Positions 42,066 through 47,582 of a stretch of 64,000 nucleotides of DNA are shown piece by piece (the first letter of the stretch is position 1; the number at the start of each line of letters is the position of its first letter). The position numbers were made by a program, and so were the translations under genes. This stretch comes from Sialis fuliginosa. Lineage: Eukaryota; Arthropoda; Insecta; Megaloptera; Sialidae. The stretch covers positions 24,682,151 through 24,746,150 of the forward strand of contig OY540814.1 of NCBI GenBank assembly GCA_961205875.1, in the 5' to 3' direction. Below the pieces are notes generated by a model. The model was not told the origin of the DNA, did not search any database, and saw only the letters and a list, made by a program, of their open reading frames with translations.

Positions 42066-44123
42066 ATGTCTGCTCTACTCTTCTACACAATAACCTTTAC
42101 ACTGTTCAACTTCGGTCGATCGGACATGAGTTTGCAAGGTCTACTCGAACCAAACCGACCTCGATGCGAAGAAATCACCATACCCATGTGTCGAGGGATT
42201 GGATACAATCTAACTTCAATGCCAAACGAACTGAACCACGAAACCCAGGAAGAGGCTGGACTGGAAGTCCACCAGTTCTGGCCGTTGGTGGAGATAAACT
42301 GCTCGCATGATCTCAAGTTCTTTCTGTGCTCGATATACGCTCCAATTTGCTTGGAGGAGTATCTAAAACCTTTGAGGGTTTGCAGGAGTGTTTGCGAGAG
42401 GGCAAAACATGGATGCGAGCCGATAATGAAACAGTACGGGTTCAATTGGCCGGAGAGGATGAACTGTGATCTGTTACCGGTCATGGGGGAGGACCCAGAG
42501 AATATTTGCATGGATAATCATGCAGGAGGTGGGACGAGCGATAGTAAACCAGCATCAGGTAAATAAAACTTTCTGAATTATTTAAAATAATTTCTTACAT
42601 TATTTTGAAAGCAAGTAATTTATATGTATTTTTTCTTTCCAGGAACACCAAAGGCAACCAAAAAGCCCACCGGTCTCAACAAATGCAAAGGAAAGAACTC
42701 AAAAAACTGCAAAGAGACCCCGTCAATGGGGGCGGGGTCAACAGAGGGGGTGGGCCGGGAGGCGTGTCAGTGTCGGTGTCGTCCTCCGCTGATTCCACTG
42801 CTATCACAGAACCGCACCAGTGTCGTGGGCGGGGGCGTAAGAGGGGCGGAAACAGAGGCGTGGCCAAGAGAAATAGGCGGCGCCAAAACGATACAGGAAG
42901 CGTGGTCAAGAGACAACAAGGAAGTAAGCATACGAGAAGGGATGGAGACGACAAAACTGTTCCAGTCGATCGGGGGAGTGTCTAGTTGTGCATATCCCTG
43001 CCGAGGGGCGTTCTTCGCGAATGAAGAAAGGGAGTTTGCAGCTGCGTGGGTGGTCCTGTGGGCGGGGCTTTGCGCGGCTTGTACTCTGATGACACTCACA
43101 ACTTTCTTAATCGACACGGAACGCTTTAAATATCCTGAAAGACCTATTGTCTTCTTATCAGCATGCTACTTCCTGGTTGCTTCCGGGTACCTTACGCGGG
43201 TTATCATTGGACACGAAGCAGTAGCTTGTGACGGAAAAATACTACGAAGAGATGCGACTGGACCAGGAACTTGCACTCTTGTATTCTTACTTGTATACTT
43301 CTTCGGGATGGCATCATCAATCTGGTGGGTTGTACTCTCATTCACGTGGTTCTTAGCTGCCGGTTTGAAATGGGGAAATGAAGCGATCTCTAACTACGCG
43401 CAGTACTTCCATCTTCTAGCATGGCTTGTGCCGACTGCCCAAACCGTAGCAGTCATCCTAGCTAACGGTGTCGAAGGCGATCCAGTAGCTGGTATTTGCT
43501 ACGTAGGAACCACACAAGTCGACCATTTGAAAATGTACGTGTTGGCACCACTTCTAGTGTACTTACTGCTCGGAACAAGCTTTCTATTCGCCGGGTTTGT
43601 GTCTCTATTCCGAATACGTAGCGCGATAAAGCGACAAGGAGGTGCTGGGGCTGGATCTAAAGCAGACAAATTGGAGAAACTCATGATACGTATTGGAATA
43701 TTCAGTGTTCTTTACACAGTTCCCGCAACGGTCGTTATCGGATGTCACTTATACGAAGCAGCTAATCACGAATATTGGGAGACAGGTTTGACTTGCCCGT
43801 GCCAACCACGTATGCGTCCTTTGTACTCAGTAGTCATGCTCAAATACTTCATGGCATTGGCAGTCGGTATAACCTCAGGAGTTTGGATTTGGTCCGGAAA
43901 GACTTTGGACTCTTGGCGTAGATTCTGGAGACGGTTGTGCGGAGGTAGCTCGACCATTCGCGACCCGACCGGCGCCGGGACTGCCCTGATCAAGCCACCG
44001 CCTCCTCCTTTAGGATACACGCCCACTCTGAACCCCGCTCCTGGCAGTGTGGCCAGTGCAAGCCACCACCACTTGCACCATCACCATCATATGTTGAAGC
44101 AGCCGCCGTTGAGCCACGTATGA
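42066..44123 (+). CDS. fz2: Frizzled-2 class Wnt receptor, two coding exons
   Basis: Coding sequence is join(42066..42558, 42643..44123), 657 residues. Residues 1-20 form a signal peptide. The CRD spans C34 to C148 with all ten cysteines (34, 42, 79, 88, 95, 106, 110, 117, 134, 148) and sequons at N48 and N78. A linker with paired cysteines (179/187, 206/208/210, 280/284) leads to seven membrane segments near 297-319, 332-354, 375-405, 418-439, 462-487, 511-535 and 559-582. KTLDSW (584-589) is the Dishevelled-binding KTxxxW motif. The tail has five prolines (616-620), a His run (639-647) and ends PLSHV, a PDZ-ligand end shared with the FZD5/8/Fz2 branch, which is why fz2 is chosen over fz. 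The CRD residues after C34 (EEITIPMCRGIGYN) also fit Fz2. The start follows an in-frame stop at 42003 and sits in CACCAAGATG. Known role: plasma-membrane receptor for Wnt ligands; Fz2 has been reported to receive WntA in butterfly wings. Confidence 0.98.
42559..42642 (+). other. fz2: fz2 intron, 84 nt, between CRD and linker
   Basis: Donor GTAAAT at 42559 follows the first base of codon 165, and acceptor ttttctttccag ends at 42642; joining gives Gly165 and keeps the Frizzled frame open into the conserved linker cysteines. If the intron is retained the frame reads Gly-Lys and stops at 42564-42566, leaving a 166-residue protein with signal peptide and whole CRD but no membrane segment. Confidence 0.9.
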
Positions 44124-44270
44124 CAAGATACCGCGTCGAGCACGATGCTGGTTACAGCTCCAAGTGTCCAAGGTACAACGGCTATGAATGTCCATACTAA
44201 CGTGCACAATACTCACGCCCACACTAACGCGTCGTCTCAGCCTGCCCTGAGCAACTATGGACCTATCTAA
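44124..44270 (+). CDS. fz2: possible stop-codon readthrough extension of fz2
   Basis: Directly after the TGA at 44121-44123 the same frame continues for 48 sense codons and ends at TAA 44268-44270. The residues are rich in Thr, Ala, Asn, His and Ser, begin QDTASSTMLV and end SNYGPI. Base composition stays like the coding exon (many C/G third positions) and falls to AT-rich right after the TAA. TGA followed by C is a leaky stop context in insects. Readthrough would bury the PLSHV end and so could switch off PDZ binding. Alternatives are a recent stop mutation, a sequencing error, or chance. The conserved-looking PLSHV before TGA argues that the short form is also real. Confidence 0.5.
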   Translation, partial: QDTASSTMLVTAPSVQGTTAMNVHTNVHNTHAHTNASSQPALSNYGPI

Positions 44271-44678
44271 GAAATGAATATACACTTGGTGCATACACGG
44301 TTGTGTCGGGTCAGGGAGATTTAACCGAGACAGTTGATCGAGTCATTAGTATTTGGAAAATATCTACAAGATGTCCCAGTTTAGAAGGTTTACAGTAGTT
44401 TACACAAATGACATTTTTCAAAGGTTTTGTCCTAATAATGACGTTTAACAAGACTACTATATTTTGTTTAAATTGCAACATTTTACACCTCTAAATACTA
44501 ATTTTATGTCGAATACAAATGCTATACAATTCGGTTTTATATCGTTTTCTAACAACGGAACTATAATCATCTAGGATTTCACAAAAAATTGTTTTTATCT
44601 CAATGATATGTAAAAAGTATTAAGAAATGCAATTGATCCTGCTGTTAAACGCCTCAAAAAATATTCATATGCATCACC

Positions 44679-44684
44679 AATAAA
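44679..44684 (+). terminator. fz2: candidate fz2 polyadenylation signal AATAAA
   Basis: First canonical AATAAA after the fz2 stop, giving a 3' UTR of roughly 570-580 nt. A second AATAAA lies at 44828-44833. The sequence between stop and signal holds no repeats that I recognise. Confidence 0.5.
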
Positions 44685-44938
44685 AGGAAAAAAACATAAA
44701 GTTGAATTTGTATGAGCTGTCTAAACCATTTTCGAAAAAGTCTCAATTCTTCGAAGCTGTGACATACTGTATATTTTTAAATTGTCAAATTTAACGATTA
44801 TATACCGAAATTTGGGATACTACATTAAATAAAAAAGGAGTTGATCATTTTTTTGATCAATTGTATTCGATAAATTTTCCGGACTACGATAATACAATGT
44901 GAGTGAAGTTAGTAACAAACTGTGTTGTTTTGTGTACA

Positions 44939-44995
44939 GTTATTCTGACAGAAAACCAACATTGCTTGGTCCTGGTAGATTTTGTGTTCCATCGT
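44939..44995 (+). other. exon-like unit downstream of fz2
   Basis: Acceptor gttttgtgtacag and donor C|GTAAGT bound about 55 nt that stay open in one frame (VILTENQHCLVLVDFVFH), phase 1 at both ends. It lies beyond the fz2 poly(A) signals, so it could be a separate transcript or chance. Confidence 0.2.
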
Positions 44996-47334
44996 AAGTA
45001 ACCTTTTTCTAATCTAGTCTACGTAAAGCCATGTAAAGCTATTATTATTGACTGAACATTTATTTTATACATAATGTGCACATCAAAATTATTATAAAAC
45101 ATACAATATATATTATTATTACTATTCGAAATATGCCATTCTCATTTTGTTAATTCGGATTTTTGTGTTGGTTATTGCAATTTTCTTTTTAATTTTAGTT
45201 TATTTATTTCTTTAAAATATTTAAATGCTAATGATCAAATTTTTATACATTATATTATAATTAGTTTAAATAAAGACATATTCACAGGAAGAGGGGGGGG
45301 GGTAAGAGAGACATGACACGCTTCGAAATGTTCGCACGCGTTGTATTCGATTATTATTTATTATTTTTATTTTAAATTTCGACAGAAATTCAACTTTATA
45401 ATGAACGCAGTTATGTAGATAAAATTATTAAAATAAAAAATTAATAACCCTTTCCCTCTTAGGGGTTGAATTTAAGAAAATCCGTTCTTAATGGGTACTT
45501 AAGTCATAAAAGGAAAATTCCAAAAATTTCATGTTTTTGGTCCCGCGCAATTTTTTCCAGAGAGATTTACCTTATAATTTTAATAATCGAAAGAATTGCC
45601 GTCCCATGATTGGCTGAAAAAAATTAATACATAATTTTCGGAAGAAATTAATTATTTCATACTAATATTTTAATTTTGAAAAAATAATTATAAATTTAAG
45701 TTGGAAAATTTAGGGGGGTGAGGTATATAAAAATATATAAGTATATAAAAGTACGCCAAAAAATTCACCTTAAATAAACATTTTAAAAGAATATGACAGT
45801 TGAAATATTTTTTTATATAATTAAAAAAAAGTAAACACGTCAAAAATAAATTGAAGTATAAACCACATTTTTACTTTTTTTTCCACATCATATGTTGGAC
45901 ATGACAATAAAATCCTACGTGTGTAATATTTACATTTAACTTCGTCCACTTATTTCTTTCGTTCCATCTGAATGGTCCTCGAGAAATACTGAAATTATGT
46001 TTTTGTTATCGTCACCTGTGGAACCTCTCAAGTATCACGGTTCTACAGGTAAAGAAAAAACTCAGGAATTGTTATTTATTCATATTGCCATTGAATGTAT
46101 CACATATTAAGAAAAGAACAAATACGAAACTTGTCATGTTTCATTTTTTATTATTGTTTGAAATTTTTTTAAAAAGCTGCAATGGAAGTTTCGCAGTGGC
46201 GCACCCAGAAAAAATTTCCGGGGGTGGGGTATTTTTTCTATAATAAAAATAATGTATATTGACAAATTCGGAGGGAGTGGGGGGGGGAGGGGTTACTAAA
46301 TATCACAATCAAATCTAGAAGTTAGTTTGAAATATTTTAAAAAGAAATTGATCTCAAAAAAATATTTTTTTTTTCATATCCTTAAAATTTTTCAATAACC
46401 AACACAAAATACTATTATATAAATAAATAAATAAATAATATAATATTAAACATTTTAATTAAAAAACACATTGATAAGTGAACAAATAAATAACGTTTTA
46501 CAATTTTGACCAATTTAGAATTAAATATAGGTATTTGTTTAAATGTATATACAATATATAGATTGTCTATTACATTATTCCATCTTTAAAAAAAAGAAAA
46601 TAAATTGATTAATGCAACATAATCAGTTTATACTTTTTGAAATTTAAAATTATTTTTGAATGATCGTCTAATAATAAAAAGGGAACATTCTTTTTTTATA
46701 ATATTTATAATTATTAGATTTAGTTGTTTAAGAATTAATAAAAATAAATAAACGTGTATAATATTTTGTAAATATCGTCGCACAACTAATTACCCAATAA
46801 TTAAGGATAATAGATCTATAATAACTGAATAATATTCATTATTATATAATATTTAAAAAACATAATTTATGTTTGTTGATTTGTAAAAAAAAATGTAATT
46901 GTTTCGCTTAACATGTACATATACATATATATATTTTTAAATGGGTGCTCTGAGAAATATTTTTTAATTTCTGGATATTAAATATAATATATATGTATAA
47001 GAAAAATATAAATTATATTCAGAAATTATCGCAGGGCAATTAAGATTTTGGCGTGCTGATACCAATTTTGTTTCCCAAATTCTTCCATTATCTCAGATTT
47101 TCAAGATATTTTAACCAAAAATTACCAAAAATAACGATTTTGGCCATGTATCTTCAAATTAGTATATCTCAGAGAAAAAAAATCGTACAGAGAAAAGTAA
47201 ACATTCATTTTAAAGAGGAAAGATAGTACTTTTTGTTACCATGAACGCAAACTTAAAAAGAAATTCTTACTTTGTAATATATTCATAAACATAGACATAG
47301 AAATATGGACTGTGCATTCTGTATTACCGTAATG
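44996..47334. other. AT-rich DNA, nothing recognised
   Basis: G-runs near 45291-45302 and 46279-46290. No supported exon. Confidence 0.4.
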
Positions 47335-47582
47335 CAGCGATTCTCAACCAGAAAAAATATTAAATTAAATTTTAAAAACATTTATGTATTATGTATTTAA
47401 CAATTAACTTATCAATATTAAATTAAAAACAAGATTAATAATTATTAGTGACTCCCTTGGGCCTGTCTTTCAGAGCAAAGTTTTTCGAAAGAAGTTATAA
47501 TAAAATTATTGTATGAGGGGTGAGGGGATGAGAATTGTGATTGAAAATTGGGTCGCAAATACAAAAAAGTTGAGAAACGCTG
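47335..47582 (+). mobile_element. hAT-type MITE family G
   Basis: Ends CAGCGATTCTCAACC and GTTGAGAAACGCTG are hAT-style inverted repeats. Flanks CCGTAATG (47327-47334) and CCATAATG (47583-47590) are an 8-bp duplication with one change. 248 bp. Longer relative at 55720-56130. Confidence 0.85.

What the first reader, a model, noticed from the sequence alone, without database searches (positions are those of the whole stretch)
44121..44270. In-frame 48-codon extension after the fz2 TGA stop: candidate translational readthrough of a Wnt receptor
Seen: TGA at 44121-44123 is followed by C, then 48 sense codons in the same frame with coding-like composition, ending at TAA 44268. The composition turns AT-rich only after that TAA. 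Known: TGA-C is a leaky stop context and insects have many readthrough genes. The PLSHV end before TGA is the PDZ-ligand end of the FZD5/8/Fz2 branch, so the short form looks functional. Inference: readthrough gives a receptor pool whose PDZ ligand is masked and whose tail carries a Thr/His/Asn-rich extension.
Basis: partly seen in the sequence, partly recalled or inferred. Interest (0 to 1): 0.85.

Follow-up and report, generated by a model that had tools for sequence, protein, structure and literature searches.

The report
Possible readthrough extension of Frizzled-2
After the stop codon of a Wnt-receptor gene (frizzled 2) in an arthropod genome, the same reading frame stays open and protein-like for 48 more codons, so ribosomes may sometimes run through the stop and make a receptor with a longer tail; this is likely but unproven, because no relatives were available for comparison.

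Summary
fz2 (657 codons, two exons) ends at TGA-C (44121-44124); 48 in-frame sense codons and TAA (44268-44270) follow. The extension's GC is 0.53, like fz2 exon 2 (0.52), against 0.37 in the next 150 bases. It is three-periodic in frame (p=0.003 and 0.0013, 20,000 shuffles); 1 of 122,684 noncoding frames of the window is both open and as RNY-rich. Against it: a codon-usage score is not frame-specific, fz2's own codons are not RNY-rich, no unusual RNA structure was found, and no relative could be compared. The PLSHV end resembles human FZD5/FZD8 ends (recalled), which favours an old, real stop.

Best reading: low-level UGA-C readthrough, as catalogued in Drosophila and Anopheles, giving a minority Fz2 whose PDZ ligand is buried. 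One assumption fails: the genome is very probably not lepidopteran, since it has an intact tRNA-Sec, SepSecS matches and the mitochondrial order I-Q-M-nad2. As it may make selenocysteine, that route was tested; no SECIS was found. New member of a known kind, unproven.

The parts
42066..42558 (+). fz2 exon 1: start codon, signal-like N terminus, Fz (cysteine-rich) domain
   Evidence: ORF and GT donor; Pfam PF01392 E 8.6e-35
42559..42642 (+). 84-base GT..AG intron that keeps the frame open
   Evidence: splice choice tested; not checked against RNA
42643..44123 (+). fz2 exon 2 with its TGA stop: membrane region and cytoplasmic tail
   Evidence: Pfam PF01534 E 5.1e-126; PDB relatives
43899..43916 (+). 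KTLDSW after the last membrane helix (frizzled KTxxxW motif; motif name recalled)
   Evidence: translation
44106..44120 (+). PLSHV, the C-terminal PDZ-ligand-like end of the short form
   Evidence: translation; likeness to FZD5/FZD8 ends is recalled, paper search found nothing
44121..44124 (+). TGA-C, the candidate leaky stop; next six bases CAAGAT
44124..44267 (+). 48-codon in-frame extension, Thr/Ala/Ser/Asn/His-rich
44268..44270 (+). TAA ending the extension; 17 codons later the frame stops again

Best explanation
The stop of fz2 is a leaky UGA-C. Most ribosomes terminate and make the 657-residue receptor that ends in the PDZ ligand PLSHV. A minority let a near-cognate tRNA read UGA and go on for one residue plus 48 more to UAA. 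Shown here: the open frame, the TGA-C context, coding-like GC and three-base periodicity, and no SECIS found. Inferred: that readthrough happens, that it is under selection, and that the long form cannot use its PDZ ligand and carries a changed Fz2 C-terminal fragment.
For: Open 48 codons in frame with GC 0.528 against 0.517 in exon 2 and 0.373 in 44271-44420. Periodicity p=0.003 and RNY p=0.0013 over 20,000 shuffles; 4 of 2,556 noncoding windows are as periodic and 7 of 2,556 as GC-rich; 1 of 122,684 noncoding frames is open and as RNY-rich. Kinase-trained phase score +2.8 in frame, -6.1 and -4.1 out of frame. Kinase-trained codon score 11.0 bits, within the range of 13 fz2 pieces (4.5-18.3), against -0.1 and -14.7 in the next two UTR pieces. 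Control: of 24 kinase frames followed past their stop, 1 stays open 48 codons or more, 1 has GC>=0.5, 0 have both; three frizzled-family gene ends stop again after 21, 18 and 3 codons at GC 0.34, 0.17, 0.35. In Anopheles and Drosophila candidates TGA is 61-76% and a following C 49-63% of the groups compared (PMC5100048, passages); TGA-C was the leakiest of three contexts in yeast (PMC3609751, passage).
Against: One genome only. The codon score is 12.4 bits in a wrong frame; it is also beaten by another forward frame in 6 of 13 true fz2 pieces, so it cannot name the frame. The extension's RNY level exceeds true coding pieces (fz2 median 0.23; 0 of 102 kinase pieces reach 0.45), so the signal comes from an unusual peptide, not from typical codon use. 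2.2% of 15,336 noncoding frames reach the phase score, and 83 of 5,094 open noncoding frames reach the codon score. Folding after the stop is ordinary (z +0.27; z -1.30; one of 34 windows below -2). The motif CAGCAGCA is absent. GC stays at 0.40-0.50 for 60 bases past TAA. By the authors' definition Tribolium and honeybee lack abundant readthrough (PMC5100048 section 17).
Confidence: 0.58

Rival explanations
1. It is ordinary 3' UTR. The DNA next to the coding region happens to be GC-rich and open, and any readthrough is noise without use.
For: Under its own composition 12-16% of stretches would be open; GC declines gradually past TAA; codon score not frame-specific; no marked RNA structure.
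Against: Frame-specific periodicity and its rarity in the window's noncoding DNA; other gene ends looked at turn AT-rich or close quickly.
Confidence: 0.28
2. The extension is translated by another route: splicing around TGA, A-to-I editing of TGA to TGG, a nonsense allele, or an assembly error.
For: Donor-like and acceptor-like sites lie on both sides of the stop; one weak pair (GT at 44047, AG ending at 44157) would remove TGA and keep the frame (site list, pairing is my reading). Only one assembly was seen.
Against: The donor-like site at the stop itself (44118) paired with the same acceptor would remove 40 bases and break the frame (my reading). The end PLSHV looks like an old, real C terminus (recalled). 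The window matches its own assembly at one place only.
Confidence: 0.1
3. UGA is read as selenocysteine by the organism's Sec machinery.
For: Intact tRNA-Sec and SepSecS matches, so the pathway is probably present; eEFSec and SBP2 were not sought.
Against: No SECIS family match at E<=5 in 43900-45400, at E<=10 in 44121-47500, or at gathering score in the window. Of 7 loose core-pattern hits in 44121-47500 one (44408) folds below -12 kcal/mol, and on my reading its upper helix is broken. A tail Sec in a frizzled has no precedent known to me.
Confidence: 0.02

Closest known systems
Abundant stop-codon readthrough of Drosophila and Anopheles (Jungreis et al. 2016, PMC5100048, sections and passages; Dunn et al. 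2013, PMC3840789, passages; Jungreis et al. 2011 not held)
   Same: TGA first stop, C after it, second ORF of middling length with a coding-like signature, low coding score after the second stop, not selenocysteine as far as tested.
   Different: Their candidates rest on multi-species alignment, ribosome profiling or reporters; here there is one genome. No enriched CAGCAGCA and no marked RNA structure, but most of their candidates lack these too.
FZD5/8-type frizzled receptors, insect Fz2
   Same: Fz and Frizzled domains, Frizzled-5 first among PDB matches, LSHV-type end (likeness recalled). In flies the Fz2 C-terminal part is cleaved and enters the nucleus (PMC3820263 and PMC7397595, passages); a reference title there ties this to the PDZ protein dGRIP (that paper not held).
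   Different: No held paper found that joins readthrough with fz2 or 'frizzled 2' (0 papers; 5 papers for frizzled, not opened). A longer tail in this pathway is my inference.

Membership tests
Insect-type functional stop-codon readthrough | Protein-coding evolutionary signature of the second ORF across species | not testable with these tools
   No relative found in viral contigs or genome contigs; the genome has no relatives held
Insect-type functional stop-codon readthrough | Leaky context, usually TGA and often C after it | tested here: met
   TGAC; shares among candidates from PMC5100048
Insect-type functional stop-codon readthrough | Coding-like second ORF in frame 0 more than in other frames | tested here: inconclusive
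   Periodicity and RNY in favour; codon score not frame-specific
[quoted passage not shown]
   Codon score -0.1 then -14.7 bits; next stop after 17 codons; but GC 0.40-0.50 for 60 bases
Insect-type functional stop-codon readthrough | Not due to selenocysteine | tested here: met
   No SECIS by Rfam or convincing pattern hit, although the genome has tRNA-Sec
Insect-type functional stop-codon readthrough | Not a recent nonsense change, splicing or editing | tested here: inconclusive
   PLSHV end argues against a new stop (recalled); splice-like sites exist; no RNA data
Insect-type functional stop-codon readthrough | Measured readthrough product | not testable with these tools
   No ribosome profiling or peptide data offered
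FZD5/8 (Fz2) frizzled receptor | Fz domain and Frizzled membrane domain in one gene, nearest to FZD5/8 | tested here: met
   Frizzled-5 first of 27 PDB sequences; no tree built
Selenoprotein | SECIS element in the 3' UTR | tested here: not met

The most novel reading that the evidence does not exclude
Readthrough is a regulated switch on a Wnt receptor: it turns a PDZ-anchored Fz2 into a PDZ-blind Fz2 with a Thr/His/Asn-rich tail, and so sets up a second receptor pool that differs in scaffolding, trafficking or nuclear Fz2-C signalling.
Probability: 0.2. Interest if true: 0.65.

Novelty: new member of a known kind. Interest (0 to 1): 0.42.

Why it matters
If true, a core Wnt receptor makes two C termini from one mRNA by leaky termination, with a clear prediction: the long form loses PDZ binding. 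That would make the function of a readthrough extension directly testable. As an example of arthropod readthrough it adds one gene to several hundred predicted ones.

Tried and rejected
Relatives: fz2 exon 2 against viral contigs and genome contigs gave 8 and 43 pattern hits, none a relative. Papers joining fz2 or 'frizzled 2' with readthrough: 0 and 0; frizzled with readthrough: 5 listed, none opened. Two butterfly Wnt papers were searched for passages only and did not help. Jungreis 2011 and the dGRIP paper are not held. LSHV with frizzled and PDZ: 0 papers, so the FZD5/8 likeness rests on recall.

Statistics: synonymous usage trained on fz2 alone was uninformative; the kinase-trained codon score follows GC more than frame. 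RNA structure after the stop was considered and dropped. Repeats in the tail are short, two copies each. A bacterial promoter/terminator scan does not apply. Rows dropped: 6 of the 30 kinase loci (stops inside the match) were left out of training and controls; L033 and L034 are inner exons and not counted as gene ends. Some of the 24 kinase frames end in introns rather than at true stops. One search read minus-strand loci the wrong way round and is replaced. In one search locus L037 is labelled fz4, but its long tail reads like Smoothened (not tested). One search failed on a frame slip and was redone.

Full report
What is there. fz2 lies on the + strand: exon 1 42066-42558, a GT..AG intron 42559-42642, exon 2 42643-44123, 657 codons plus stop. 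Pfam finds the Fz domain (E 8.6e-35) and the Frizzled membrane domain (E 5.1e-126). Of 27 distinct PDB sequences matched at E<=0.001, Frizzled-5 is first (E 7.9e-124). The protein ends LKQPPLSHV; from memory, human FZD5 and FZD8 end in similar LSHV and LSQV ligands. A paper search for this found nothing.

The extension. After TGA comes C, then 48 sense codons and TAA. GC is 0.528 in the extension, 0.517 in exon 2, 0.373 in 44271-44420 and 0.269 in 44420-44720. In 30-base steps the fall past TAA is gradual: 0.40, 0.50, 0.33, 0.37, 0.27, so the statement that the composition turns only after TAA is right but not sharp. No Pfam family matches the extension at E<=1.

Chance. Openness alone is weak: 0.016 under UTR composition, 0.12-0.16 under its own. 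Periodicity is better: base-by-phase G is 21.5 against a shuffle mean of 6.7 (0.31% of 20,000 reach it); RNY codons are 0.46 in frame and 0.06 and 0.23 out of frame (0.13% of shuffles). In the window's noncoding DNA, both strands, 122,684 frames of 144 bases were tested: 5,091 open; 286 open with GC>=0.5; 1 open and as RNY-rich; 0 of these also with GC>=0.5 or as periodic. I tried several statistics and they do not all agree. The codon score trained on 5,459 kinase codons from 24 loci gives 11.0 bits in frame, within the 4.5-18.3 of 13 fz2 pieces, but 12.4 bits in a frame with two stops; in 6 of 13 fz2 pieces too another forward frame scores higher, and 83 of 5,094 open noncoding frames reach 11.0. 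A kinase-trained phase score is +2.8 in frame and -6.1 and -4.1 out of frame; 2.2% of 15,336 noncoding frames reach it. RNY-rich codons are no habit of the genes looked at (fz2 median 0.23; 0 of 102 kinase pieces reach 0.45), so the signal comes from the Thr/Ala/Asn/Ser-rich peptide.

Controls within the genome. The window is C6:24682151-24746150 of a 392 Mb assembly in 20 contigs, and the stop region matches there once. Of 30 kinase loci, 24 without stops in the match were followed past their stop: 1 stays open 48 codons or more (GC 0.38), 1 has GC>=0.5, none both, none has TGA-C; some of these frames end in introns. Three frizzled-family gene ends (L035, L036, L037) stop again after 21, 18 and 3 codons with GC 0.34, 0.17 and 0.35.

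Mechanism. In the candidate groups compared in Anopheles and Drosophila, TGA is 61-76% and a following C 49-63%; both are said to raise leakage, and conserved RNA structures mark only 9% of the candidates (PMC5100048, passages). TGA-C was the leakiest of three contexts in yeast (PMC3609751, passage). Abundant readthrough was reported for most tested insects and a crustacean, but not, by the authors' definition, for Tribolium, honeybee or a centipede (PMC5100048 section 17). Here RNA folding near the stop is ordinary (1 of 34 windows below z -2), so the stop context would have to do the work. The expected result is a minority long form. Its end, NYGPI, has Gly at -2 and is not a class I PDZ ligand (rule recalled). 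In flies the Fz2 C-terminal part is cleaved and imported into the nucleus (PMC3820263, passages), so a longer tail could matter there too; that is inference.

Selenocysteine and the organism. A check meant to dismiss selenocysteine gave a surprise: the genome has an intact tRNA-Sec (74.2 bits, gathering 47, anticodon TCA) and five SepSecS matches covering profile positions 21-388 of 389 within 1.6 kb, two of them with stops inside, as introns would give. No known lepidopteran encodes selenoproteins (PMC5330540, passages; see also PMC2500217, passages). Contig C20 (15,590 bases) is the mitochondrial genome (cox1, cox2 and nad2 recognised by eye); its tRNAs run Ile, Gln, Met before nad2, and Leu(taa) lies at the cox1-cox2 junction. 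That is the ancestral insect order, not the Met-Ile-Gln order of ditrysian Lepidoptera (both recalled). So the genome is probably an insect or near kin, very probably not a lepidopteran; its order was not determined. Sec decoding of this UGA remains unlikely, since no SECIS was found.

Verdict. Ordinary UTR is the main rival (0.28). It is a candidate new member of a known class.

Noticed in passing
L041:1501-1586 (G000:C3:23371793-23371878) and L048-L052 (G000:C12:18529014-18530567): An intact selenocysteine tRNA gene and SepSecS matches: the host genome probably makes selenoproteins, which does not fit a lepidopteran.
   Followed up: partly
L053 and L054 (G000:C20, 15,590 bases): Mitochondrial contig with the tRNA order Ile-Gln-Met-nad2 and GC 0.21; its cox1 protein could name the order of the organism.
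   Followed up: partly
L037 (G000:C1:19237462-19237848, minus strand, and downstream): A frizzled-family gene, Smoothened-like by its long tail, also ends in TGA-C, but the frame closes after 3 codons.
   Followed up: no
window 44408-44450: A long imperfect hairpin with UGA on both arms, faintly SECIS-like, in the fz2 3' UTR; judged not a SECIS because the upper helix is broken and Rfam gives no match.
   Followed up: partly
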